Origin: Luteibacter rhizovicinus
GTDB taxonomy: Bacteria; Pseudomonadota; Gammaproteobacteria; Xanthomonadales; Rhodanobacteraceae
Direction of reading: 5' to 3'
NCBI RefSeq assembly: GCF_004342265.1
Contig: NZ_SMCS01000003.1
Span: 434,001 to 498,000, forward strand
Length of the DNA: 64,000 bases
The translations under genes were made by a program, and so were the position numbers. This document shows, piece after piece, positions 42,391 through 55,055 of this stretch. The notes under the pieces are model-generated. The model made no database searches and had not been told where the DNA came from. It saw only the letters and a program-made list of their open reading frames with translations. Every line of letters starts with the position of its first letter. Position 1 is the first letter of the stretch.

Positions 42391-43410
42391 ATGACCTATC
42401 CCAATGCGCTGTACGAAACCCAGCCTGCCACCGGCAACGGCATGGTCATCAACTGCGTCGCCTATAGCACCGGCGGTCGCCGCATCGGCGACATCAGCAT
42501 CGACGACATCAGCGACGTACTGAAACAGCCCGACACCTTCGTCTGGATCGGCCTGCACGAACCCGACGAATCCCTGCTGCTGAAACTGCAGGAAGAATTC
42601 GACCTGCACGATCTGGCCATCGAAGATGCCCAGCACGCCCATCAGCGCACCAAGATCGAAGTCTACGGCGACTCGCTCTTCATCGTCGCGCAGACAGCCC
42701 AGGTCGTCGGCGGCAACATCGCCTTCGGTGAAACCCAGATCTTCGTCGGCCAACGCTACTTCGTCACCGTGCGCCACGGCGCGTCGCTGTCCTACGCACC
42801 CGCGCGCCGCAGCTGCGAACAATCGCCCGAACTGCTGGCCATGGGCCCGAGCTACGCGCTGTACGCCGTACTCGACTTCATCGTCGACAACTTCCTGCCC
42901 ATCGTCCGCGACTTCAGGGAAGAACTGCACAAGCTGGAAAACGACATCTTCGCCGAGACATACAACCGGCAAACCATCAAACGCCTCTACGACATGCAGC
43001 GCGAACTGATGACCTTGCGTCTTGCCGTCGTACCGCTACAGGATATCGTCGCCCAGCTCGTCCGCCTGCACCCCCACCTCATCCACGACGAACTGCGCGC
43101 TTACTTCCGCGACATCTACGACCACGTCTTCCGCGTCAACGAATCCATCAACGCCATGCGCGAAATGATCGGCGCCGCCATCAGCGTCAATCTGGCGCTG
43201 GTGACCTTCGGTCAGAACGAAGTCATGAAAAAGCTTGCGGGCTGGGCCGCGATGCTCGCCGCACCGACGTTGATTACGAGCTGGTACGGCATGAACTTCG
43301 TGCACATGCCCGAGCTGGATAAGCCGTGGGCATATCCGGCGATTACATGTCTGGTGGCCTGCATTGTCGGCGGCATCTTCATGGCGCTGAAGCGGAATCG
43401 CTGGTTTTAG
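42391..43410 (+). CDS. corA: CorA-family magnesium/cobalt transporter
   Basis: This 339-residue protein has the long N-terminal cytoplasmic domain, the helical stalk and two C-terminal membrane helices. The selectivity motif GMN is in SWYGMNFVHMPELDKPWAYP, and the C-terminus is basic (KRNRWF). It lies after corC and DUF4105 in the same direction, so the three may form a metal-homeostasis unit. Met18 is an alternative start. Confidence 0.93.
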   Translation: MTYPNALYETQPATGNGMVINCVAYSTGGRRIGDISIDDISDVLKQPDTFVWIGLHEPDESLLLKLQEEFDLHDLAIEDAQHAHQRTKIEVYGDSLFIVAQTAQVVGGNIAFGETQIFVGQRYFVTVRHGASLSYAPARRSCEQSPELLAMGPSYALYAVLDFIVDNFLPIVRDFREELHKLENDIFAETYNRQTIKRLYDMQRELMTLRLAVVPLQDIVAQLVRLHPHLIHDELRAYFRDIYDHVFRVNESINAMREMIGAAISVNLALVTFGQNEVMKKLAGWAAMLAAPTLITSWYGMNFVHMPELDKPWAYPAITCLVACIVGGIFMALKRNRWF

Positions 43411-43660
43411 GCAATTCGGCGCATCGCCCTCCCTAACGCCGCATTCGCGGCGTCCCGCAAAAGCTCCCGGTGCATGCATGGCAAGGTTGACGAGACAACA
43501 CCCGCCGGCACCGCCCTCCGACACGCCTAGCATCCAGCGGTGACGCCGCCCCAACACACACCTACAACCAAAGGTGTATTCCACGATGCCAACGATCAGC
43601 CTAGCGTTGAGCACATGCATAAAGGATGCGAAATAAACCGCGCATCAAAAGGTTGGGTCT

Positions 43661-44569
43661 ATGCGCCTTGGCCTGGTAGCCAATCATCTGCATCACAGCC
43701 ATCCGAAAGCGGCACTGTTTCGCTGGCTTCACCGCTGCGAAACAGGCATCCGCGAACTGAATCTTGGATTGCATACCGTCGGAGGCACGCACGACGCGAT
43801 CGCCCGCGCCGGATGCCTGACCAACTACCCCGCACTACGTCGCTATCCCAGCGGCCATGAAGGCGGATTGGTAAAACTGGTAGCCGGCATAGTGGGAGCC
43901 GTCGCGTCCAACGAGGTACTGGACGGCGCGATCTATCTGGTCAATCCGGTCGATGGCTCGTCGCTCTTCCCCGAAGCACTCGCACTCAAACGCCAATGCA
44001 TCGTTCACCAGAAACCCTTCCTCTCGACGGTAGCCTCAGCCTGCGACTGGGTGGAAATCGAGCGCATCCGCGCAGGCATGAAACCGGATGATGGCGCCGA
44101 TCCGCTTCACGCCATGCCATCCCAAACGATAGCGATGATTGCCCACGATGCGATGAAAGCACCGATGATGGCCTTCGCCGACAAGCATTTCGACCTGCTA
44201 TCCCGCTTCGCCTTCCGCGTCGCTACCGGCACTACCGGCAAGAGCCTCAATGAGTTGGCCCGGAAGCACGGTTGGCCAGAGGAAGCATCGTGGGTCACAT
44301 GCTACGAGAGCGGCCCGATGGGTGGCGATGCACAGATCGCCAATCTCATATTCGAACGGCGCTGCCAACGCTTACTTTTTTTCGAAAACCCACACGTACC
44401 ACACCAGCACGAGGCCGATATCCAGTTACTGGAACGTGCCGTGGCCGCCACGACCGACGATACGGTATGCATTACCTGCCCCGCCTCGGCCATCCGTTGG
44501 GCGGAGGCTGCCGAGCGACGTGCGAGGTTGCGTCCGTTACGGGTTGATTACGTCGCCGGCAAAGATTGA
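43661..44569 (+). CDS. Tandem double methylglyoxal-synthase-like protein
   Basis: This 302-residue protein is built from two methylglyoxal-synthase (MGS) halves. The C-terminal half (from about residue 152) has the family motifs MIAHDAMK, ATGTTGKS (188-195), SGPMGGD (217-223, the catalytic Asp) and VPHQHEAD (His248). The N-terminal half (1-140) has a matching layout, VANHLHHS, TVGGTHD and SGHEGGL, but the catalytic Asp position is Leu70. Ordinary MGS is about 150 residues. Activity would convert dihydroxyacetone phosphate to methylglyoxal. ATG 43661 has AAGG 9 nt upstream. It stands alone. Confidence 0.8.
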   Translation: MRLGLVANHLHHSHPKAALFRWLHRCETGIRELNLGLHTVGGTHDAIARAGCLTNYPALRRYPSGHEGGLVKLVAGIVGAVASNEVLDGAIYLVNPVDGSSLFPEALALKRQCIVHQKPFLSTVASACDWVEIERIRAGMKPDDGADPLHAMPSQTIAMIAHDAMKAPMMAFADKHFDLLSRFAFRVATGTTGKSLNELARKHGWPEEASWVTCYESGPMGGDAQIANLIFERRCQRLLFFENPHVPHQHEADIQLLERAVAATTDDTVCITCPASAIRWAEAAERRARLRPLRVDYVAGKD

Positions 44570-44592
44570 GTATCGGTTGTGGCAGGTATCCG

Positions 44593-44658
44593 GCTATAGA
44601 GTCAGAGTGATTTTTGACTCATCGTTTGGAGTCTGCGAGGACAAGTACCTCTAAAAAA
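44593..44658. repeat. Truncated copy of the GGGTCAGAG MITE-like element
   Basis: This 66-bp segment aligns without gaps to 46602-46667 and differs at 8 positions, all transitions. It keeps the left end (AGTCAGAGTGATTTTTG) but loses the right inverted repeat after the A-run. Confidence 0.75.
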
Positions 44659-44726
44659 CATCTCTTCCCCTCCAATCGCATGGCGCCTCGCCCGATAAAT
44701 CGCTACGCCTCAAACCCCTCACCGTC

Positions 44727-44746
44727 ATTCCTGCGCAGGCAGGAAT
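44727..44746. repeat. Small palindromic repeat unit
   Basis: ATTCCTGC/GCAGGAAT is an 8-bp stem with a 4-nt loop, in the context CACCGTCATTCC...GGAATCCAGCG. This is the form of a REP-type unit common between proteobacterial genes. Confidence 0.5.
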
Positions 44747-44991
44747 CCAGCGCGATGCATCCGGCTATCACACCAAAACAACATCGGCTCTTCGGGCACC
44801 ATACGAACCACACACACGTCCGCATTGCGAACCCACCCAAACAACTCAGACTAATCTGAAAATCGCACCGAAATAACGAAACAGTATTGACCCACCACCC
44901 ACACACACCGATCCTCACCACGTCGCCGCACAACGGCGACCGGGCAGAGCAGCCTGTGTTTCGCGGAAGGCGCGGAAAGGTGTCGTCTCAA

Positions 44992-45123
44992 ACGATACTT
45001 TTCTGCGTCGCGTATCGTCACGCCGCTCCTTACGGCGGGCGTGTCGGGCAAGCTTCGGCTTGGCCGGGTTCCTTTCGCACCGGTACTGCTCTCTCGGCAC
45101 GCCCGCCACCTCACGGTGGCGGG
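44992..45123 (+). other. Candidate structured leader RNA with mutually exclusive stems
   Basis: Stems found by hand: ACGATAC/GTATCGT (44992-44998 with 45012-45018); CGCCG/CGGCG (45021-45025 with 45033-45037); a 10-bp long-range stem GGCGGGCGTG/CACGCCCGCC (45034-45043 with 45098-45107) enclosing CAAGC-TTCG-GCTTG; and a 9-bp hairpin CCCGCCACC/GGTGGCGGG (45102-45123). The long-range stem and the last hairpin share 45102-45107 and exclude each other. The element ends 26 nt before the start codon of the CxxC gene. Confidence 0.45.
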
Positions 45124-45149
45124 TCATCCCGAACTGAAAGGATGCAGAC

Positions 45150-45404
45150 ATGACAAGCGAAGAAACTACCGCCGCGCAAGCGAGCCACGAGGCAAGCACG
45201 ACCATTCCCTGTCCGCTTTGTGCGGGCGCGCGTCGTATCGAGGCGTCCGACGTAGATCAAGCCATCGTCGACCGACTGGAAGCACTTCAGGGATTCAGCG
45301 ATGTCGTCAGACAAGCCGCGCAGTTGATCGCTTCGACCGTGACCGAACTCGGGCTATTAAGCGCTACGCCCACGTTCGAAACGGCGCCACGTCGCGATCA
45401 ATAG
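45150..45404 (+). CDS. Small CxxC protein, 84 residues, unknown
   Basis: ATG 45150 is preceded by AAAGG about 8 nt upstream. The protein has one CPLCAGARRIEASDVD segment, a single CxxC knuckle like those of small zinc or chaperone-like proteins. A helical stretch follows (VDRLEALQGFSDVVRQAAQLIAS) and then a disordered tail. Only one Cys pair is present, so metal binding would need a dimer or a partner. No family is recognised. Its leader is unusually structured, and it lies between the MGS-like gene and the end of the Rhs array, convergent with the latter. Confidence 0.6.
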   Translation: MTSEETTAAQASHEASTTIPCPLCAGARRIEASDVDQAIVDRLEALQGFSDVVRQAAQLIASTVTELGLLSATPTFETAPRRDQ

Positions 45405-45532
45405 CGAAGCCCAAAATCGACAACGACAGAGCAATGAAACTAAAGTCCGCGCTGAAGACGGGATCAAGGAGGGGGTCCTACCAATCCCTTCCGGCTTAGC
45501 TCAAAAGACTCTTTTCTAACGAGCCCTGATGC

Positions 45533-45856
45533 TCAGCGAAGAATAATCCAGAGCACGGCTATAACGATGAGCACACCTGCCATGGATGCAAAAAAACTCA
45601 CTACTCCACCTAGTACGTATTTTCTTGCTCTGATTCCTCGTTCGTTTAACAGTGATGGCGAGAAGATAACGTTCATAGGGTTCCATAGCGTACTTTTTGA
45701 GTACGCTTGTCTATCGTCGCGAAAGCTAAAAACCATTCGCATTGCGAAGAAAATTATCCACAAAATAGACAGCCCACCAACAATACACAGTGCGACAAAG
45801 ACGTAAATGAGAAAATGAGAAAATATGTACAGGGCACAATCTCCAGTTAATGACAC
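45533..45856 (-). CDS. Two-TM membrane protein, candidate immunity partner of the displaced Rhs tip
   Basis: This 107-residue protein has two hydrophobic segments (residues about 10-40 and 80-106) and a polar, basic loop (FRDDRQAYSKSTLWNP). It starts with GTG at 45856, overlapping the last 10 nt of the upstream Rhs fragment. Its base composition is visibly AT-richer than the flanking genes, as expected of acquired DNA. A small membrane gene overlapping the 3' end of an Rhs tip suggests an immunity protein against a membrane-acting toxin. This is inference; no family is recognised. Confidence 0.55.
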   Translation of the reverse strand: MSLTGDCALYIFSHFLIYVFVALCIVGGLSILWIIFFAMRMVFSFRDDRQAYSKSTLWNPMNVIFSPSLLNERGIRARKYVLGGVVSFFASMAGVLIVIAVLWIILR

Positions 45857-46566
45857 TTCGAGCCGAAGTGATCACTGAACCACCCTTCAGCATCCTGAAG
45901 TCCAAAATGTCCGCTTTGGGTCGTAGTCAAAGAAGCCCCAGCGAGCAACCCGAGCCCTAAACCGACCGAGCCACTGCCTGTCAGATTGGGATCAACAGCA
46001 ACGCTACCGGTACATTGAAAGGTTCCACCACTTAGATTCGCATCTACAGTTTGACCGCTGAGATTGCTCGACGAGCCGGGAACATAGCCACCGCTTATGC
46101 CGACGCCAATATTGGCACCTATACCCCCTCCCACAGAACCGTAGACGCCTACATCGAAACCTCCAGCACCATAACTTACATAGAGACCGCCTCCGGCCGT
46201 GAATCCACCGCCGGCAATAGCGCTGACGTTCGCGCCAAGAGTCAAATTGGTCAGTTCGAGAGGGTCGATGCCAATTAGGGGGTTATTTATCACATACGCG
46301 TAGGTAGATTTTCCTCCGAACAAGCCCATTGGATCGCTCTGAACATACCGTCCCGACGCAGCCTCGTAGTCACGGTGGACGTTATATGCGAGGCCTGACT
46401 CCGCATCGAAGTACTGCCCGGGAAAGCGCAGATTGAGTGCGTAGGCATTGAGGGAGAGCGGTGCCGCTTCACAGAAAGAATCACTCGCGCAAGGCCATTG
46501 CCACTGTACTGCGCCTGTGACATTTGTGACCACGCGCGGAGAGCCGAGACCATCGGCACGTACATA
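45847..46566 (-). pseudogene. Displaced (orphan) Rhs C-terminal end with variable tip
   Basis: The fragment begins inside the conserved Rhs core (YVRADGLGSPRVVTN), continues with LNLRFPGQYFDAESGLAYN and SGRYVQSDPMG, and passes the core end (IDPLEL). It then enters a 134-residue glycine-rich tip (from TNLTLGANVS to DHFGSKCH). The core part is close to the intact Rhs protein at 47229-51842, but the tip is unrelated. The frame is closed by a TAG just upstream and has no proper start; only an internal GTG at 46533 without a ribosome site is available. It is probably silent, serving as a reservoir of an alternative or former tip. Confidence 0.75.
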
Positions 46567-46607
46567 GCTGACGGTAGCCAGCCGTGGTACCGCTGCGATT
46601 AGCTATA

Positions 46608-46679
46608 GGGTCAGAGTGATTTTTGACTCGCCGCCTGGAGCCTGCGAGGACAAGCACCTCTGAAAAATGACTCTGACCC
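46608..46679. repeat. 72-bp MITE-like element with 18-bp inverted ends
   Basis: The ends GGGTCAGAGTGATTTTTG and GAAAAATGACTCTGACCC are inverted repeats with one mismatch. The centre is GC-rich (GGAGCCTGCGAGGACAAG). It lies exactly upstream of the displaced Rhs core and supplies the in-frame stop. A truncated relative is at 44593-44658. Confidence 0.75.
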
Positions 46680-46773
46680 CTTTGGTCCAGAGATCAGGCC
46701 GATGGCCCCAACGTTCATCGGCAGAGCTGTTCCCCATTCAGATCGGCAGGCAAGCATTGGTGACTGGACCGTA

Positions 46774-47232
46774 TTAAGAACAGTAAGCCGGAGACGCCGT
46801 GTGATACGTCCACACAAGTCCCACGTGAGTCTGAGAGCCGGTGCCAGTAGGGCTCGATTCAACTGTCAAACTGGTCCCGTGCTTGCAAAAGACTGCGATC
46901 CTGCTTGATTTTTGGTCTTCCGAAAAAAGAGTCCACCCTAACTCCGGAGCGACACTTTTGTACCTATTTACCACTTGTTCGGGGGAGGCTGTGCTTTCGA
47001 GAAGGCCGGTTACCCCGATGGATGAACTGCGATCAAATTTTTTTATGTTGCCTATCAGATCAACCCCATACGGAAGTTTTTCCATCTCGAGGCTTAATGC
47101 CTCGACTGTCGGCCTTGGCCTTTCGATCGATTCAGTTTTCCCGCGCCACCACTGCCAAGCCTCGAGGCTCAAGACTGCAATGAACACAACAGCAAAAACA
47201 AGCTGTGCAATCAAGCGTGCCGTCGGATTCAC
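46774..47232 (-). CDS. Membrane-anchored candidate immunity protein of the intact Rhs
   Basis: This 152-residue protein has one N-terminal helix (LIAQLVFAVVFIAVLSLEAW) followed by a soluble domain with SPEQVVNRYKSVAPELGW and SSRIAVFCKHGTSLTVES. That topology would place the domain in the periplasm. GTG 47232 overlaps the Rhs stop (GTGA), the coupling expected of a toxin-immunity pair. The family is not recognised. Position, coupling and the parallel gene at 45533-45856 are the evidence for immunity function. Confidence 0.65.
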   Translation of the reverse strand: MNPTARLIAQLVFAVVFIAVLSLEAWQWWRGKTESIERPRPTVEALSLEMEKLPYGVDLIGNIKKFDRSSSIGVTGLLESTASPEQVVNRYKSVAPELGWTLFSEDQKSSRIAVFCKHGTSLTVESSPTGTGSQTHVGLVWTYHTASPAYCS

Positions 47233-50200
47233 CAGCTCAATCCCGTGCTCAATACCGGCACATTGTTCTCCACGGCCTGATAAGACCCTCCGGGTGTGCC
47301 AAAACCCGTTTCAAGAGACGACCCAGATGAATTGTACGAGATACCGCCCCCGAGACCATAGAAGCCCGAGGCTCCCGTTGATGCGCCATTGACGAAGTCA
47401 TCCACCGCAGCCGCAGAATGGTCGCAGCCGGATAGCAGCCCGCTCGTAACAGACCCTCCGAACTTACCGCTTACCATGTTGGCTGCACCCGTATATGCGG
47501 CACCAAAACCGATATACAGAGCTCCACTTCGTGTCAGGGTCAGACTCAAGGTTCCCACGTACGTTCCTATGGACGCATGGTAATAGTCTGGTGCCGCAGG
47601 TGGAGGCCGCCCCCAGAATCCTGGGTTATACATCGCTGCACTATCGTCGAGCCCCAAGGGATCCATAGATACCAGTGGCGTATTGTGCGAATAGATGTAT
47701 GTCCCCGGCCCTGCGGTGATGCCTATCGGGTCGCTCTGCAAGTATCTTCCGGATGCAGCATCGTAGTCACGATGGATGTTGTAGGCCATGCCGGATTCTG
47801 CGTCGAAGTACTGCCCCGGGAAGCGGAGGTTGAGCGTATAACTCGTCGCAGATACCGGTGTATTCTCTCCGAACGGATTGCTGGCGTAGGGCAACTGCCA
47901 CAATGTGGCGCTTGACCCATTCGTGACCACCCGCGGAGACCCAAGACCATCGGCATAGACATAGTTGATACCAGTGACGGTACCGTCCTGATCAACAATG
48001 CTGACTGGCAGGTCGTCCATCCAGACGTAGTCCCGCGTGGTGGTGCCGACGCTTTCAGTAAGTAGGTGGCTTGCCTCGTCGTAGTCAAACCGGGTTGTGA
48101 CACCACCGGCCGTCTTCTGGATGCGCTGACCCAGGGCATTGAGCACGTAGGTACCGACGGTAGTACCGCTGTTCTGAACGACCGTGAGGCGGTTACGCTG
48201 GTTGTAGCCATAACCGAACGCTCCGGAGGCCAGCACGTTGGCAGTCGTGTTGCCACGTGCGTCAACCTCGCGCGTGGTCGTGCCTACTCCTGTCAGACGG
48301 TGCGTGCCGCTTTGGTAGCTATACGTGCCGGCCAGCAGTCCCGGTGCGGTCTTCGACAACCGGTCACCGGTCTTGTTATAGGTGTATGCCTCAATGGCCG
48401 CTCCACTTCCGCTATTGACGTTGGTCAGGCGGTAAAGCGGGTCATAGACGTATGTCTCCGTGGCAGGGCTCGCTCTCACCGTGTCGCCCAGAGCGGTGAC
48501 ATTGCCCATGGTGTCCCGGGCAAGATGCAGGGAGAACGCCGTGCTTGCGATGTCGGTTAGCTGACCATTGGCATCGTAGGTACGCGTGACCGTCTGGCCG
48601 TTGCCGAGCACGTAGCTGGCAATCGAACCGAAGGGCCGATAAATAACATTGGATGCGACTGTGGTCGCTGTGCCGCCGGAGGGCGTGGCCGCAACCGTGG
48701 TAATGCGGCCATTCGCGTCGCGGGCATAGGTCACCACTGTGCCGTTAGAGGTGCTTGTCGAGCTGAGCCGGTTGCCAAGCGTCCAGGTGTAGCTGGTCGT
48801 GGTGGTCACGGTGCCGACGGTCTGCTGCTTCTTGATCACGTTCCCGCGTTGGTCGTAGCAGTAAATGATGCCGCCACTGCCTTCGATGACGCGGGTCAAC
48901 CGTCCGTTACCCGCACTGCCCGTGCAACCGGTAACCGAGTCTGCTTCGTCGAATTTGTACGCAACGTTGAGCGTCGTGTCGGGGTAGGTAATCGCAGTCA
49001 AACGACCCACCGCGTCGAAGGTCGACGTCGTGGCGATGTTGGTCGCATCGACTGAACTGGTCGGGTTGCCGCCAATATCGAACCCGCGCGTAGTGGTTCC
49101 CGTATCGGGACTGTGCAGGCCGGTAACGTTGCCGAGCGCATCGATGTCGTATGTCGTGTTCAGGCCATCCGGATCACTGAATCCTGTCACCCGATCGAGG
49201 GCATCGAAGGTCCTCACCGATTGGCTGTTTGCCGTGGCGGTGTTCGTCCCCTGATAGTCCTTGAGGGTGCTGACCAGCCGGTTCAGACCATCGAAGACCT
49301 GCTTACGCTGGACGGACAGACCATCTTGGCTGTGCACAAGATTGCCGTTGCCATCAAAGCTGTCGGTAAAGCCGGCACTGAAAACGGTACGGTTCAAGCC
49401 ATCGCTCAGCGTCATGAGCTGGCCGAGGGTATTGAACGTGCGGCCGAGCGAACGCGTCACGACGCCAGTTGGATCCTGCACCTGTTCACTCGTCCGATTG
49501 CCGCCGGCATCCAGCGTGTAGTGAATGCGATTGCCCAGCGCATCGGTGATATCGGTCAGGTGGTGAGCGGCGTCATACGTGTATGTCACGGTGACACCGT
49601 CTGCATCCCTGACCTGATGAACGGTGCCATCCGCGTTGTAGGTGACGGTGGTGATTGCATCTAATGCAGAAGCAGTACCCGATGCGTTTGCGCGCACGGT
49701 CGTCGTTGCCAGCCAACCACGCGGCGTATACGTAAAGTCGGTCAAGACTCCATTGGGGTCCTTGACGCGGGTAACTCGTCCGGCCTTGTCGTAAGAGATA
49801 TAGGTCGTGACCAGACCCATACCGTCGGCGACGGACTTGAGGTCGCCAAGGTGATGGCAGGAGCCGCCGAGTGTCGCGCAACCTGATTCGTCTGTGGTGA
49901 GGTAGTAAGCGTAAGACAGCGTGTCGGTCACATCCGTGCGTGGCCCGTCGACCGTCAGCAGAAGGCCGAGGAGCGGGCAGGTCGTCGTGTCGACCAAGGA
50001 GCAGTAGGTCATCAGCGAGCGGCGGACGCTGGCCGGCGCGGTGCCCGAGGCCGAGCAGGTGTAGGAGGGAGCAGCGACCGGGTCGATGAGGCAGGCGGCC
50101 GTGGTCAGGCCACTTGCGTTGTAGTCCCAACCCTCTTTGCTGACCAGGTTACCGGCATTGTCTTTGACGGTGCGAAGAAGCGGCACACGCAGGGTGGTGT

Positions 50201-51842
50201 TCCATGTGGTGTCGATGGTGCGCTGGTCGGGCTTGCCTTGGGCGTCGACCTTCTGGGTCATCAATCCGTTGGCGTCATACGTCACCGCCGTGACGTTGCC
50301 ATTGAAGTCGGTGTAGGTCGCCGGACGGCTGTTCGCATCATAAGTACGGGTTTGGAAAGGCTGGCCGCATTCGCCGCATGGCTTGTCGAGGGTCGCTACA
50401 CGAGCAAGGCCCTGGACCATGGTGTAAGCCTGATGCGAGCCCCCTCCCAAGGGATAAGTCACGTCCGACGTACCATCGGCATTGTAAGTAATCGAGATCT
50501 TTCCGACCCCTGCCGAAAATTGCGTCGACGTGGCCCGCCCCAGGCTGTCGAACGCCGTGTCCTCATAACGAACACCGTTTTCGTCGACAATTCCGGTCAT
50601 GGCCAACGGCAGGTTGCCACTGTTACTCAGTGCGAACTCGTTATAGAGATACTGGCGAGTCTTCCCATCGGGATACTGTACAAAAGTGAGATTGCCTGCG
50701 CTGTCGTACGTATACACCAAGGTGCCGCCGTCCGGCTCAGTGATCTGGCGAACGCGTGCATCGGAGTTATACGTGAGCGACAGTTGGCGACCATTCGGTG
50801 CCGTCACCGTAAGAAGCAGGCCGGGCTTGGGTGCCACGGTGGCGTCGGTTGATGCGTCGCTATAAGCGAGCGTTGCTACTTGTCCAGTCTGATCCTGGAT
50901 AGTGAGGAGACGCCCATCGGCGCTGTAAGTCTCTGAATGATGTAGCGCAGCCACGCTCAACGTATAGCCGATAGCGTGGCCTTGGGAGTCATCGGTTTCG
51001 GTCAACAGGTCAGGGTTATTTGCCGTCGTGGTCCAAGTTGCACCACTCGTCTTTTGGAACGTCTCACGAACGCCATTAGGACGATTCACGACAAGCGTAG
51101 GCGCACCATCGCTATAGCGAGAAAGGCTGCGGTTGAAGGAGTGGCTCCAACGCGAGCCCATCGACGTGGAGATGCCTGACGGAGAACTATTGTAGAAGCG
51201 ACGGAAGGTCAGCCATGGGTCCGGAGTGAAATCATCCTCCTGGATGTACTTGTTGCCAGTGGCTGTATTGATAGGATCACCGGCTTGCGGCAGTCCAAGC
51301 TCTGACGCACCTTGTGTTTGTTCGCAAGAGGGACTGCCGGCGCCACTCTTGCCGCCGTCGCCGTCGTGTCCCTCGCCACCGTCACAGCCCGCGCCTGGGC
51401 CATTGTTTTGTCCGGGTTCGTAGTCGCCAAACTGACATCCGTAAGAACCAGCGTGTGAAGGGTCCTCACCCCAGTGATAGCCGGCATCACACGTGTATAT
51501 CGAATAAGAAGCGAAGTTCGTGTACAGCAGCTCGGGAGGCCAACCGGGAAGGGGAATAACACAATGCGCGTCTGCCACCATTTGGGTGGTATGCAACGGC
51601 GGATTGTATGAATCCCCCGAGGGATCTTCTCGCCAGTCGGCCAGCCAGCAGTACTCGGGTGACCCGACTGATGAAAAGTATGAGGTCCACGCGGCAGCCG
51701 TTGCGTTCTCCGTCCACGCCTGAGCGGTAGGGCCGTCCCACTGGCGCCGGGTTCCATCAAAGGTGCTTACGGCGTTGTAATTTTGTGCGTCAAGCAGAGG
51801 AGAAAGAAGGGACAACACGAGAAAAATCCATATCCTTTTCAT
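47229..51842 (-). CDS. Rhs/YD-repeat protein with Sec signal peptide and variable C-terminal tip
   Basis: This 1537-residue polymorphic-toxin-type protein starts at ATG 51842, with GGAG 7 nt upstream. It has a Sec signal peptide (MKRIWIFLVLSLLSPLLDA), a Gly/Asp-rich linker (about 140-175), and a DUF6531-like domain (GDPINTATGNKYIQEDDF). About 1000 residues of YD repeats follow, then the RHS core (YADGLGSPRVVTN, GQYFDAESGMAYN, SMDPLGLDD). After residue ~1400 comes a 137-residue tip, rich in Gly, Ser and Tyr (SGALYIGFGAAYTGA, GFYGLGGGISYNSSG), without recognised motifs. No PAAR, VgrG or type VI gene is near, and the Sec signal suggests a WapA-like export route. Confidence 0.9.
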   Translation of the reverse strand: MKRIWIFLVLSLLSPLLDAQNYNAVSTFDGTRRQWDGPTAQAWTENATAAAWTSYFSSVGSPEYCWLADWREDPSGDSYNPPLHTTQMVADAHCVIPLPGWPPELLYTNFASYSIYTCDAGYHWGEDPSHAGSYGCQFGDYEPGQNNGPGAGCDGGEGHDGDGGKSGAGSPSCEQTQGASELGLPQAGDPINTATGNKYIQEDDFTPDPWLTFRRFYNSSPSGISTSMGSRWSHSFNRSLSRYSDGAPTLVVNRPNGVRETFQKTSGATWTTTANNPDLLTETDDSQGHAIGYTLSVAALHHSETYSADGRLLTIQDQTGQVATLAYSDASTDATVAPKPGLLLTVTAPNGRQLSLTYNSDARVRQITEPDGGTLVYTYDSAGNLTFVQYPDGKTRQYLYNEFALSNSGNLPLAMTGIVDENGVRYEDTAFDSLGRATSTQFSAGVGKISITYNADGTSDVTYPLGGGSHQAYTMVQGLARVATLDKPCGECGQPFQTRTYDANSRPATYTDFNGNVTAVTYDANGLMTQKVDAQGKPDQRTIDTTWNTTLRVPLLRTVKDNAGNLVSKEGWDYNASGLTTAACLIDPVAAPSYTCSASGTAPASVRRSLMTYCSLVDTTTCPLLGLLLTVDGPRTDVTDTLSYAYYLTTDESGCATLGGSCHHLGDLKSVADGMGLVTTYISYDKAGRVTRVKDPNGVLTDFTYTPRGWLATTTVRANASGTASALDAITTVTYNADGTVHQVRDADGVTVTYTYDAAHHLTDITDALGNRIHYTLDAGGNRTSEQVQDPTGVVTRSLGRTFNTLGQLMTLSDGLNRTVFSAGFTDSFDGNGNLVHSQDGLSVQRKQVFDGLNRLVSTLKDYQGTNTATANSQSVRTFDALDRVTGFSDPDGLNTTYDIDALGNVTGLHSPDTGTTTRGFDIGGNPTSSVDATNIATTSTFDAVGRLTAITYPDTTLNVAYKFDEADSVTGCTGSAGNGRLTRVIEGSGGIIYCYDQRGNVIKKQQTVGTVTTTTSYTWTLGNRLSSTSTSNGTVVTYARDANGRITTVAATPSGGTATTVASNVIYRPFGSIASYVLGNGQTVTRTYDANGQLTDIASTAFSLHLARDTMGNVTALGDTVRASPATETYVYDPLYRLTNVNSGSGAAIEAYTYNKTGDRLSKTAPGLLAGTYSYQSGTHRLTGVGTTTREVDARGNTTANVLASGAFGYGYNQRNRLTVVQNSGTTVGTYVLNALGQRIQKTAGGVTTRFDYDEASHLLTESVGTTTRDYVWMDDLPVSIVDQDGTVTGINYVYADGLGSPRVVTNGSSATLWQLPYASNPFGENTPVSATSYTLNLRFPGQYFDAESGMAYNIHRDYDAASGRYLQSDPIGITAGPGTYIYSHNTPLVSMDPLGLDDSAAMYNPGFWGRPPPAAPDYYHASIGTYVGTLSLTLTRSGALYIGFGAAYTGAANMVSGKFGGSVTSGLLSGCDHSAAAVDDFVNGASTGASGFYGLGGGISYNSSGSSLETGFGTPGGSYQAVENNVPVLSTGLSW

Positions 51843-52329
51843 CAGTGCGCTCCACCGTTAAATGCATGATTAGCGCTATGGCGACCGCCGTGGCTTCCGT
51901 AGCGCGCGTCGCCCAACAGCGGGATGTGATCAAAAAGTCTCGTGAGGTACCTGTGCCTACCCCTCCAAAAGGCAATCTGCGCGAGTACGGCGTCAGGACT
52001 GATCGGAGGCAGGACGTTGCAAAGCATTTTGTGCGGCATGCGGCGTCCAGACTCGAGTGATGGAGCGACGTTTACGTCGCAGCTCGGCCCAAATCCCCAA
52101 TCGTCGGGCGCGCTCGCGGCGAACGATAGGTCGAGATCATCCGAAAGTCTGTAGGGGAAATCTTACAGCGTCCGATTCGTGATCGGTTTGGCGTTGCCAA
52201 AGACGACACCATCGCCGTGAAGCAACGGCATTCCAACGGTTCACTGCGAGAGAAGGTGGGGGACCCTGGCAACTGCGGAAATCGGGACGGAGGCTGAGAT
52301 ATCCCCACGTTTCATACAGGCAGAACAAT
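51843..52329. other. Region between rhs and the IS3 relic; no confident gene
   Basis: This 487-nt stretch should contain the rhs promoter. A 65-codon minus-strand frame (51842-52039) ends in ATGA with the rhs start, but its codons and weak start do not persuade. A plus-strand stretch around 52130-52290 (RKSVGEILQRPIRDRFGV) resembles decayed coding sequence, origin unknown. Confidence 0.4.
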
Positions 52330-52889
<560 letters not shown>

Positions 52890-52929
52890 GGGCAAGCGCG
52901 CTCCTACAGGAGAGCTGCGGTTCCGATAG

Positions 52930-52961
52930 AAAAGCGGCGACCCATGGGTCGCCGCTTTTTG
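52930..52961. terminator. Terminator after the S9 peptidase gene
   Basis: The palindrome AAAAGCGGCGACCC/GGGTCGCCGCTTTTT, 7 nt past the stop, has A and T flanks suitable for termination in both directions. Confidence 0.85.
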
Positions 52962-52967
52962 TCTTCT

Positions 52968-55055
52968 CTATTTAGCCGCTGGAGCCGTCCACTGCTTCAA
53001 CCACGCATTCACCGTCTCATGCCACTGCACGCTGTTCTGCGGCTTCAACACCCAGTGATTTTCATCCGGGAAGTGCAGCAACTTGCTCGGAATACCGCGA
53101 CGCTGTAGCGCCGTAAATGCACCAAGCCCCTGCGTATCGGGAATACGGAAGTCCTTGCCGCTGTGGATGACAAGCATCGGTACGCGCCAGTCCTTCACAT
53201 GATTGATCGGATTGAAGCGCTCATAGTTCTCAGGATGGTCGTACTGCGTACCGCCGTTCTCTTTCTCTTCGAACCAGAGTTCTTCGGTGTCGTAGTACAT
53301 GGCGCGTGCGTCGAAGACACCGTCGTGGTCGATGAGGCACTTCCACGGCTCGTTCCACACGCCGGCGATCCAGTAGACCATATAGCCGCCGTAGCTGGCG
53401 CCGAGCGCGCAGGCGCGGCTTCCATCGAGGAAGCTGTATTTACCTAGCGCCGCTTTCCAGCCCTGCTGCAGATCGATCAGCGGCTTGCCGCCCCAGTCGC
53501 CAGAGATGGCATCGGTGAATGCCTGGCCGTAGCCGGTGGAGCCATGGAAGTTGACGGTGACTACCGCGAAGCCCTGGCCCGCGTATGTCTGCGCGTTCCA
53601 GCGATAGCTCCAGCTATTGGTCATCGCGCCCTGCGGGCCGCCGTGGATGATGAAGGCGACCGGATAGGTCTTGCCGCGCTTGTAGCCAACCGGCTTGACC
53701 ACGTAGCCCTGCACGGTTTCTTCGTTGGCACCCTTGAACGTGAAGAACTCAAAGTCGCCGGTCTGGGCGTTCTTCATGCGCTTCGCGTTGTAATGCGTCA
53801 CCTGCTTCAGGCTCTTGCCACGAAGGTCGGCCGTATACAGATCGGCCGGATGCTTGAGATCGTCGCGCGACAGCAGCAGACGCGTTGCGCCGCTGGCGTC
53901 GAATGCACCAACCGAGCCTTCGGTGACCAGCGTCGTGACCTTACCCGTCGCCGTGTCGATAGCGAACAGCGGGTGCTGACCGTTGTCGTCGGCGGTGGTG
54001 TAAAGCGTCTTGCCGTCGCGCGAAATCTGCAACGCACCGGCAGAACGGTCCCAGTCGGGCGCGACTTCGCGCTTCGTGCCACTGGCGAGATCCAGCGCCA
54101 TGATGCCGAAACGGTCGGCCTCGGAACCCGGCTCCTTCATCGCCGTGTAGTACAGCGTCTTGCCATCGGGCGAAGACAACGGGTTCGCGTCCCACGCCTC
54201 GTTCGCTTCGGTCAGGTTGACCGGCGCAGCAGAACCATCGACCGGCACGCTGAAGATGTCGAAGTTGGTCGACCACGGTTCCGTCTTGCCGGCGATGCGC
54301 GCGTCGAAGTAGACCGTGCGGCCATCGGGTGAGAACGAGAATTCGTCGTCGCCACCGAAGGGCTTGCTCGGCACGTCGCCGTCGATGCCGCGACTGAGCA
54401 GTACCGGCGGCGAACCGGCGGTGACGTCGGCGACGTAGAGCTGCGCGCGACGGCCATCGGCCCAGGTGTCCCAGTGGCGTACGAACAGCTTGTCGTACAC
54501 AGTGCCGGTGGATTTGTCTTTCTCGCGACCGTCCAGACGCTCCTTGGTGCAGGCAAGGTCGGCGCAGTCGGTGAAGACGTCGAAGGTCAGCAGCAGCTTC
54601 GAGCCATCCGGCGAGAGCTTGTAGCTATTGACGTCGATGGGCGCGTCGGTGACGGCCTGACCGGCGCCAGCGGCGAGGTTCAGCCCCTTGCCCGAGGTTC
54701 CCAGCGTGCGACGCCAGACCTGGGCCACGCCATCCTTCGGCGCGGCATAGAACAGCGACTGGCCATCGGGCGCCCAGCGCGGCGACGAGCCCTTGTCCAC
54801 GACCTTCACCGGTTGGCCGACCCTGTCCAGATCCAGCACGTAGATCGCCGTGACGCCCTTATTGGCGGCGTAATCGGTCGTGCGGACGGTATAGGCGGCG
54901 TAGTGGCCATCGGGCGACAGCTGCGGATCGCCCACGCGATCCATCATGACCAGATCGCGGATGGAGAACGGGTGCGGCGCGGCGGTATCGGTATCCGCGG
55001 CCCAGACCGGGCTGGCCGCGAGCGCGAGGGCTAGCGCGGCGAACAGAGGCTTCAT
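52968..55055 (-). CDS. Secreted S9-family prolyl oligopeptidase (acylaminoacyl-peptidase/DPP5-like)
   Basis: This 695-residue exported peptidase has a signal peptide (MKPLFAALALALAASPVWA), then a seven-bladed beta-propeller region with repeated SPDG motifs (QLSPDGHYAAY, WAPDGQSLFY, FSPDGRTVYF). The C-terminal alpha/beta-hydrolase domain has the triad Ser554 (GASYGGYM), Asp635 (SGKDFRIPD) and His667 (DENHWV). It probably releases dipeptides or amino acids from peptides in the periplasm. It is divergent from a POT peptide transporter, a sensible functional pair. Confidence 0.93.
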   Translation of the reverse strand: MKPLFAALALALAASPVWAADTDTAAPHPFSIRDLVMMDRVGDPQLSPDGHYAAYTVRTTDYAANKGVTAIYVLDLDRVGQPVKVVDKGSSPRWAPDGQSLFYAAPKDGVAQVWRRTLGTSGKGLNLAAGAGQAVTDAPIDVNSYKLSPDGSKLLLTFDVFTDCADLACTKERLDGREKDKSTGTVYDKLFVRHWDTWADGRRAQLYVADVTAGSPPVLLSRGIDGDVPSKPFGGDDEFSFSPDGRTVYFDARIAGKTEPWSTNFDIFSVPVDGSAAPVNLTEANEAWDANPLSSPDGKTLYYTAMKEPGSEADRFGIMALDLASGTKREVAPDWDRSAGALQISRDGKTLYTTADDNGQHPLFAIDTATGKVTTLVTEGSVGAFDASGATRLLLSRDDLKHPADLYTADLRGKSLKQVTHYNAKRMKNAQTGDFEFFTFKGANEETVQGYVVKPVGYKRGKTYPVAFIIHGGPQGAMTNSWSYRWNAQTYAGQGFAVVTVNFHGSTGYGQAFTDAISGDWGGKPLIDLQQGWKAALGKYSFLDGSRACALGASYGGYMVYWIAGVWNEPWKCLIDHDGVFDARAMYYDTEELWFEEKENGGTQYDHPENYERFNPINHVKDWRVPMLVIHSGKDFRIPDTQGLGAFTALQRRGIPSKLLHFPDENHWVLKPQNSVQWHETVNAWLKQWTAPAAK

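What the first reader, a model, noticed from the sequence alone, without database searches (positions are those of the whole stretch)
45533..51842. Rhs locus with a displaced second tip and two partner genes
Minus-strand order is: intact Rhs (1537 residues), GTGA-coupled partner, displaced Rhs core end with an unrelated tip, overlapping second partner. The core parts (DGLGSPRVVTN to DPLxL) are alike and the tips differ. That is the footprint of tip replacement by recombination in the conserved core, known for Rhs and CDI loci. The Sec signal, absence of VgrG/PAAR and xanthomonad-like setting make this an understudied variant.
Basis: partly seen in the sequence, partly recalled or inferred. Interest (0 to 1): 0.75.

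Follow-up and report, generated by a model that had tools for sequence, protein, structure and literature searches.

The report
Rhs toxin locus with spare cassette
A bacterium, probably of the genus Luteibacter, carries a large Rhs protein ending in a toxin-like tip with a likely protective partner, followed by a spare, disconnected second tip with its own partner; this layout is known from other bacteria, while the two tip-partner families are barely described and may act at the cell membrane.

Summary
The anatomy is confirmed: a Rhs protein of 1537 aa with a Sec-like N-terminus, an overlapping partner, a displaced Rhs core end without a start signal, a second tip and a second partner. It is a main Rhs-CT/partner pair plus an orphan cassette, a known arrangement. 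Each tip has its own partner family: the partner 1 profile hits directly downstream of 11 of 15 tip 1 loci not used to build it; 4 of 4 strong tip 2 loci have partner 2, but those four also defined it. Both partners look like membrane proteins. The tip 1 model resembles the Vap barrel fold; one relative weakly matches Ntox22, a predicted RNase. I favour a membrane-acting toxin, as inference. Tip exchange is visible in a sister locus: L. jiangsuensis carries tip B attached; Luteibacter sp. SG786 carries a tip 1-type tip attached and tip B displaced behind a duplicated 152-bp core with a crossover-like mosaic. In the window itself the two core ends are only 72% identical in DNA (65% in protein), no closer than to Rhs genes of other species, so a recent exchange there is not shown. 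A 78-nt element with two copies in the genome brackets the displaced cassette.

The parts
47229..51842 (-). Intact Rhs protein, 1537 aa: signal-peptide-like N-terminus, DUF6531, RHS/YD repeats, RHS-associated core, tip 1
51786..51842 (-). Sec-type signal-peptide-like N-terminus (about 19 aa), judged by eye
   Evidence: no signal-peptide program was available
47664..47968 (-). Attached core end of the intact Rhs (part that is repeated downstream)
47232..47663 (-). Tip 1 (144 aa from DPLGL); AlphaFold2 model rich in strands, nearest solved folds R. equi VapB/VapG
46774..47232 (-). Partner 1 (152 aa): N-terminal TM helix plus alpha/beta domain with two Cys invariant in 9 of 9 aligned members; likely membrane-anchored immunity protein; which side the domain faces is not settled
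46572..46773 (-). Linker between partner 1 and the displaced core end
46602..46680 (.). 78-nt element with terminal inverted repeats, copy 1; two copies found in the genome
46267..46571 (-). Displaced Rhs core end (no start signal)
45847..46266 (-). Tip 2 (139 aa from DPLEL), glycine-rich; read as all-beta by eye, no model made
45533..45856 (-). Partner 2 (107 aa as annotated, GTG start uncertain): two TM segments; likely inner-membrane immunity protein; 42.0% G+C
44593..44671 (.). 78-nt element, copy 2 (88% identical over 66 nt), about 860 nt beyond partner 2; the two copies bracket the displaced cassette

Best explanation
This is an interbacterial Rhs locus of the WapA/Bcn-A type in a genome of the genus Luteibacter (genus inferred). 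The intact Rhs is made with a Sec-type signal, folds as a shell around its C-terminal tip, cuts the tip free at the DP-motif pair, and delivers it to neighbouring bacteria. Tip 1 is a small beta-barrel toxin that most likely acts on the inner membrane, from the periplasm; partner 1, anchored in the inner membrane, protects the producer. Downstream lies a stored second cassette (core end, tip 2, two-TM partner 2) without start signals. Its partner may still be expressed and protect against rivals, and the cassette could become active again by recombination in the core. Such cassettes are exchanged in this genus by crossover in the core near the DP-motifs. In the window the exchange was old, or the cassette came from a diverged Rhs lineage. 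Shown: anatomy, tip-partner linkage, attached/displaced alternation of relatives, a crossover-like mosaic in a sister locus. Inferred: secretion, cleavage, toxicity, membrane target, immunity.
For: Rhs domains. Tip 1 family in 20 of 398 order genomes, own included. Partner 1 HMM hits directly downstream of 11 of 15 tip 1 loci not used to build it, at E<=0.01, two of them weak and one behind a broken tip. Tip 2 strong in 4 of 398 genomes, own included, with partner 2 adjacent in 4 of 4 (these four built the model). Two invariant Cys in 9 of 9 partner 1 proteins, N-terminal TM by hydropathy in 7 of 9, two TM in 4 of 4 partner 2 proteins. Sister locus: flanks 94-95% identical; SG786 has 1.0 kb of new tip+partner and a 152-bp core duplication; attached and displaced copies form a mosaic against L. 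jiangsuensis (permutation p 0.00065). Tip 1 model pLDDT 76.8, pTM 0.72; Foldseek ranks 1-3 are R. equi VapB, VapB, VapG (prob 1.00, 0.99, 0.96; TM by query 0.46, 0.45, 0.43). GspD over its cut-off in the genome; Bcn-A activity was lost in an xpsD (T2SS) mutant (PMC7259588, passages).
Against: No toxicity or immunity was tested. Foldseek E-values are weak (best 0.024; none under 0.001) and TM is moderate. One tip 1 relative matches Ntox22, a predicted RNase family, at E 0.0023 (under Pfam's cut-off), which would point to a cytoplasmic target. Charges do not support a periplasmic domain of partner 1: in the window protein the 15 residues after the TM helix hold 4 basic residues against 1 before it, and in the other six with a called TM the after-side is equal or higher. 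4 of 15 independent tip 1 loci lack a partner 1 hit; 2 of 9 partner 1 proteins fall below my TM threshold. The genome holds two T6SS sheath genes, so T6SS delivery is not excluded. The window cores are too diverged to show a recent exchange. In SG786 the attached core differs from L. jiangsuensis at 28 of the 300 bases before the repeated segment, so the mosaic is not clean.
Confidence: 0.55

Rival explanations
1. The second unit did not arise by displacement of this Rhs gene's own tip but arrived as a separate cassette from another Rhs lineage, through the 78-nt repeats or illegitimate recombination.
For: Displaced and attached cores are no closer to each other (65% aa) than to Rhs cores of other species (66%, 63% and lower). 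A 78-nt element with two copies found in the genome brackets the cassette. Partner 2 is 42.0% G+C in a 61.9% window.
Against: Core fragment, tip and partner in this order are what core-mediated displacement leaves. The same kind of array arises with a core mosaic in SG786, and the three G112 core copies are 90-98% identical. The two elements are 88% identical over 66 nt, so a recent insertion is unlikely too.
Confidence: 0.35
2. Tip 1 is a distant Ntox22-type endoribonuclease acting in the cytoplasm; partner 1 is an immunity protein whose domain faces the cytoplasm.
For: 3 of 9 tip 1 members hit Ntox22 at E<=10, best 0.0023; the best one aligns over residues 28-147, profile 2-113 of 129. Zhang et al. 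2012 predict Ntox22 to be an RNase with conserved D, D, H, E, H (PMC3482391, passages). The charge pattern around the TM helix of partner 1 leans this way.
Against: The hit is under Pfam's cut-off (18.4 against 25 bits). No His column is invariant in the tip 1 alignment. The window tip itself has no hit. Two Cys invariant in 9 of 9 partners fit an oxidising compartment better.
Confidence: 0.27
3. The second unit is a decaying fossil of a duplicated Rhs gene without present use.
For: No start signal; the second DP-motif is DPLEL rather than DPLGL.
Against: Tip 2 and partner 2 frames are open and recur as a pair in 4 genomes of 3 genera; a plain duplication would carry tip 1 again.
Confidence: 0.2
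4. The tips are not toxins but surface or host-interaction domains, and the partners are assembly factors.
For: Vap proteins, the nearest folds, are host-directed virulence proteins (PMC10100859, PMC10903876, passages); no catalytic signature was found.
Against: A variable tip behind an Rhs core and DP-motif with an overlapping cognate partner is the layout of Rhs toxin/immunity pairs (PMC3150448, passages).
Confidence: 0.1

Closest known systems
Rhs orphan rhs-CT/rhsI cassettes and C-terminal displacement (Jackson 2009 PMC2935791; Poole 2011 PMC3150448; passages seen)
   Same: Main Rhs with attached tip and partner, then core fragment + unrelated tip + partner; such tips found attached in other species; exchange proposed by recombination in the core via a circle
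   Different: Cores within the window locus are 72% identical in DNA rather than identical; the gene has a Sec-like N-terminus; Jackson et al. compared Enterobacteriaceae
Bcn-A locus of Xanthomonas perforans (PMC7259588, passages seen)
   Same: Large YD-repeat Rhs/WapA protein active in the supernatant, with a downstream immunity gene predicted in the inner membrane
   Different: Bcn-A needs further genes (ORF2, ORF4); its proteins were not compared here by sequence; no orphan cassette in the passages seen
Tse5, pore-forming Rhs toxin of Pseudomonas aeruginosa (PMC10684867, passages seen)
   Same: Rhs shell delivering a C-terminal toxin to the inner membrane, preferably from the periplasmic side
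   Different: T6SS effector; its tip was not compared here by sequence
Vap family of Rhodococcus equi (PMC10100859, PMC10903876, passages seen)
   Same: Predicted tip 1 has a low-confidence N-terminal tail, four strands, a helix, then two long strand regions, which recalls the eight-stranded Vap barrel with a mid helix and disordered N-terminus; top Foldseek hits
   Different: No sequence relation found; Vaps are not Rhs tips and have no immunity partner that I know of (recalled)
Ntox22 (Pfam PF15527; PMC3482391, passages seen)
   Same: Mostly-beta polymorphic-toxin tip; weak match of one tip 1 relative over nearly the whole tip
   Different: Under cut-off; no invariant His in tip 1; listed there for T5SS proteins with no immunity named

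Membership tests
Rhs polymorphic toxin | RHS/YD repeats and RHS-associated core before a variable tip | tested here: met
   PF05593 E 1.4e-54, 12 stretches; TIGR03696 E 1.3e-17
Rhs polymorphic toxin | Paired DP-motifs (DPxGL type) at the tip boundary | tested here: met
   DPIGI at residue 1371 and DPLGL at 1394, 18 residues between; the displaced copy has DPLEL as second motif
Rhs polymorphic toxin | Tip toxic and neutralised by cognate partner | not testable with these tools
   Needs a bench assay
Rhs orphan CT/immunity cassette | Core fragment + unrelated tip + partner downstream, lacking initiation signals | tested here: met
Rhs orphan CT/immunity cassette | Related tip found attached to longer Rhs frames elsewhere | tested here: met
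   Tip 2 relative in a 729-aa frame in G144, whose Rhs may be broken further upstream; SG786 displaced tip attached in a 1520-aa frame in L. jiangsuensis
Rhs C-terminal displacement (Jackson model) | Attached and dissociated cores identical within the locus | tested here: not met
   72% over 250 nt in the window; 88% in SG786; 92% between attached and displaced copy in G112, 90-98% among its three copies
T6SS Rhs effector | PAAR/VgrG/EagR association and no Sec signal | tested here: inconclusive
   No PAAR match in P0001, Sec-like N-terminus by eye; two TssB genes elsewhere in the genome; VgrG and EagR not searched
Vap fold | Eight-stranded barrel with mid helix | tested here: inconclusive
   Model pLDDT 76.8; Foldseek prob 1.00 but E 0.024 and TM by query 0.46; VIA-align library not available
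Ntox22 | Score over Pfam cut-off | tested here: not met
   Best 18.4 bits against a cut-off of 25; the window tip has no hit

The most novel reading that the evidence does not exclude
Tip 1 founds a family of antibacterial Rhs tips with the Vap barrel fold that permeabilise the rival's inner membrane from the periplasm and are neutralised by a membrane-anchored immunity protein. The membrane-active Vap fold of R. equi would then have relatives among interbacterial polymorphic toxins. The stored second cassette carries a further membrane-directed pair.
Probability: 0.3. Interest if true: 0.68.

Novelty: new member of a known kind. Interest (0 to 1): 0.45.

Why it matters
The layout itself is established biology. 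The value lies in one tip-partner pairing that recurs in two families of a bacterial order and another in three genera of one family, both with almost no annotation in the libraries searched; in a possible link between the R. equi Vap fold and interbacterial toxins; and in a pair of related genomes where a tip exchange can be read base by base, with a mosaic of the kind that the proposed circular intermediate of Rhs diversification would leave.

Tried and rejected
Common ancestry of tip 1 and tip 2: profile comparison gives probability 0.8%; the BLASTP match was run without composition correction and is probably glycine-driven; not accepted. Solved-structure sequence searches with tip 1, partner 1 and tip 2 profiles gave nothing significant; best E 0.15, 0.94 and 0.063 (the last an Opa60 barrel). 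Viral contigs: no relative of either tip. Plasmids: no match to a Dyella tip 1 relative; P0003 matched 1110 records, none over 80% of the query, and at most 48% in the 10 rows listed, i.e. the core part. Ntox22 in 369 class genomes and 14 controls: nothing rang anywhere, so uninformative. Dispersed repeat (REP) as explanation of the 78-nt element: rejected, two copies at this threshold; its end motif has one further place elsewhere with one mismatch. It did not match the 81-nt repeat of the SG786 locus. Partner 1 fold: Foldseek's best are mixed alpha/beta proteins (e.g. DcrB, EagT6, PsbP, LppA) with TM about 0.4 or less; no assignment made. The second structure job went to partner 1, so tip 2 has no model. 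My first core-end script used a pattern that missed the window and was replaced; the first tip-listing script looked at one strand only and was replaced. I also corrected the tip 2 genera from four to three and the G112 core identities.
Full report
Observation. On the minus strand of 45533-51842 lie, in order, a 1537-aa Rhs protein, a partner gene whose GTG overlaps the Rhs stop, a stretch that repeats the end of the Rhs core, a different tip, and a second partner gene overlapping the tip's stop. Pfam and NCBIfam recognise RHS repeats, DUF6531 and the RHS-associated core in the intact protein, and NCBIfam the core again in the second unit. The second unit has no usable start: the frame is closed by a TAG at 46605 and its first start-like codon is a GTG at 46533, inside the core.

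How alike are the two core ends? They match over 250 nt at 72% (E 1e-31). That is far beyond chance but not more than family resemblance. Among 51 distinct core ends from the loci then in hand, the displaced one is 65% identical in protein to the attached one, 66% to a Rhs of another genome of the genus (G143), and 58-63% to the ten others listed; the attached one behaves the same way. So the window does not carry the signature of a recent exchange between identical cores.

Each tip has its own partner. Tip 1 relatives occur in 9 of 147 family genomes and 20 of 398 order genomes, own genome included in both. Nine tip 1 loci with their downstream neighbours gave a partner alignment with three invariant columns, W100, C116 and C151. 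A profile of it then hit directly downstream of 11 of the 15 tip 1 loci that had not been used to build it (E<=0.01; two weak, 3.8e-4 and 0.004; one of the 11 follows a broken tip; misses L088, L090, L098, L102). Tip 2 relatives are rarer: 4 strong and 3 weak of 398 genomes, the strong ones in 3 genera of one family. The four strong ones are each followed by a two-TM partner 2 relative, but these four are also the set that defined it; the three weak ones have no partner 2 hit. Partner 1 has an N-terminal TM helix in 7 of 9 by my hydropathy threshold and two Cys conserved in 9 of 9, which would fit a disulfide in the periplasm. Against this, the residues after the TM helix are as basic as those before it, or more so, in all seven (4 against 1 in the window protein), so the side of the domain is not settled. 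Partner 2 has two TM segments in 4 of 4; the 15 residues after the first are net positive in 3 of 4. Two different partners that both look like membrane proteins suggest that both tips act at the membrane. This is inference.

Tip 1 structure. An AlphaFold2 model from six sequences (window plus the loci) has mean pLDDT 76.8 and pTM 0.72: a low-confidence tail, four strands with a short helix among them, a helix at 84-92, then two long strand regions. Foldseek against the PDB puts R. equi VapB, VapB and VapG at ranks 1-3 (prob 1.00, 0.99, 0.96; E 0.024-0.057; TM by query 0.43-0.46) and VapD at rank 23. The Vap fold is an eight-stranded barrel divided by a short helix with a disordered N-terminus (PMC10903876, passages), and VapA permeabilises membranes (PMC10100859, passages). 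The likeness is suggestive, not proven: no E-value is under 0.001. Against a membrane target, 3 of 9 members touch Pfam Ntox22 at E<=10 and one reaches 0.0023 (18.4 bits, cut-off 25) over nearly the whole tip; Ntox22 was predicted to be an RNase (PMC3482391, passages). The His columns such an enzyme would need are not invariant in tip 1.

Tip exchange seen elsewhere in the genus. G089 and G062 are marked as the window's genus, hence Luteibacter for the window by inference. SG786 and L. jiangsuensis share an orthologous Rhs locus with flanks 94-95% identical on both sides. L. jiangsuensis has tip B attached. SG786 has a tip 63% identical to the window's tip 1 with its partner attached, and tip B with its partner displaced behind a second copy of 152 bp of core; about 1.0 kb is new. 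Within the 152 bp the attached copy equals L. jiangsuensis for the first 113 positions and then differs at 7 positions; the displaced copy differs at 17 positions, 12 of them in the first 113 and none in positions 144-199 that follow; beyond the copy, tip B and its partner are 93-100% identical by windows. The permutation p of 0.00065 treats sites as independent. The mosaic is not clean: the attached core differs from L. jiangsuensis at 28 of the 300 bases before the segment, and the Rhs gene as a whole is 88% identical. A single crossover with a circle carrying core end, tip, partner and linker predicts such a mosaic; it is the intermediate proposed by Jackson et al. (PMC2935791, passages). 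In G112 a displaced tip 2 relative follows a Rhs with an unrelated tip; its attached and displaced cores are 92% identical, and three core copies there 90-98%.

Short Rhs-core frames are common in the family. Among the matches listed (the list was cut), 13 outside this genome lie in open frames under 400 aa; two of these begin within 250 bases of a contig start and may be cut by it, and I did not inspect each.

Setting. The locus lies between a CorA-like gene with an mgs-like gene and an S9 peptidase. In the genus this interval is variable: of 20 stretches fetched, 12 contained both CorA and peptidase, with gaps from 88 bp to 8.7 kb and different cargo; one of the 12 (G152) holds a long Rhs in the opposite orientation. 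In G153 and G010 the mgs-like gene lies about 120 and 35 bp from the peptidase with no Rhs between; G153 has a Rhs core end on the other side of the mgs-like gene, at its contig start. A 78-nt element with terminal inverted repeats was found twice in the whole genome, at 46602-46680 and 44593-44671, bracketing the displaced cassette. Recombination between such direct copies would release a circle with the cassette; this is a hypothesis. In SG786 a different 81-nt repeat has a similar placement.

Delivery. The N-terminus reads as a Sec-type signal by eye; the protein has no PAAR match. The genome has a GspD over its cut-off and two T6SS sheath genes. Bcn-A of X. perforans, a Rhs/WapA-type bacteriocin, lost activity in an xpsD mutant (PMC7259588, passages), so type II secretion is my favoured route; it was not tested.

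Literature. Passages were seen of PMC2935791, PMC3150448, PMC7259588, PMC3482391, PMC8636562, PMC10684867, PMC10100859 and PMC10903876; no paper was read whole. Searches for Ntox22 (two papers), Vap with toxins or with Rhs (2 listed of 2; 87: 12 listed of 14) and Luteibacter/Dyella with Rhs terms (10 listed of 112) listed no title on a Vap-fold Rhs tip or on Rhs loci of this genus; that covers only the held open-access library and the listings shown.

Verdict. Real, and a member of a known kind of locus, with two little-known tip-partner families. Tip exchange is well supported in a sister locus, not in the window itself.

Noticed in passing
window 46602-46680 and 44593-44671: 78-nt element with near-perfect terminal inverted repeats in one copy, found twice in the 4.47-Mb genome, both beside the displaced cassette.
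   Followed up: partly
window 42391-55055: The CorA to S9-peptidase interval is a variable site across the genus: 88 bp in one genome, up to 8.7 kb with different cargo in others, a Rhs in opposite orientation in G152 and a Rhs-core-like 322-aa frame in G076, the latter by eye.
   Followed up: partly
window 43661-44569: Gene with a weak MGS-like domain (under cut-off), found in 4 of 23 genomes of the genus, own included, at E<=1e-40.
   Followed up: partly
L062 (G144) just after the partner 2 relative: A further displaced core end with yet another glycine-rich tip follows the tip 2/partner 2 pair; L073 (G145) has a similar one (by eye).
   Followed up: no
L069 (same genome, contig 2): Another Rhs gene with a glycine-rich tip and no ORF of 60 aa or more starting on its strand within about 600 nt downstream.
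   Followed up: no
window 52330-52539: Short frame that resembles an IS3-type transposase fragment by recall; Pfam shows no match.
   Followed up: partly
L061 (G112): The attached Rhs tip upstream of the displaced tip 2 relative looks peptidase- or amidase-like by eye, with a short partner gene.
   Followed up: no
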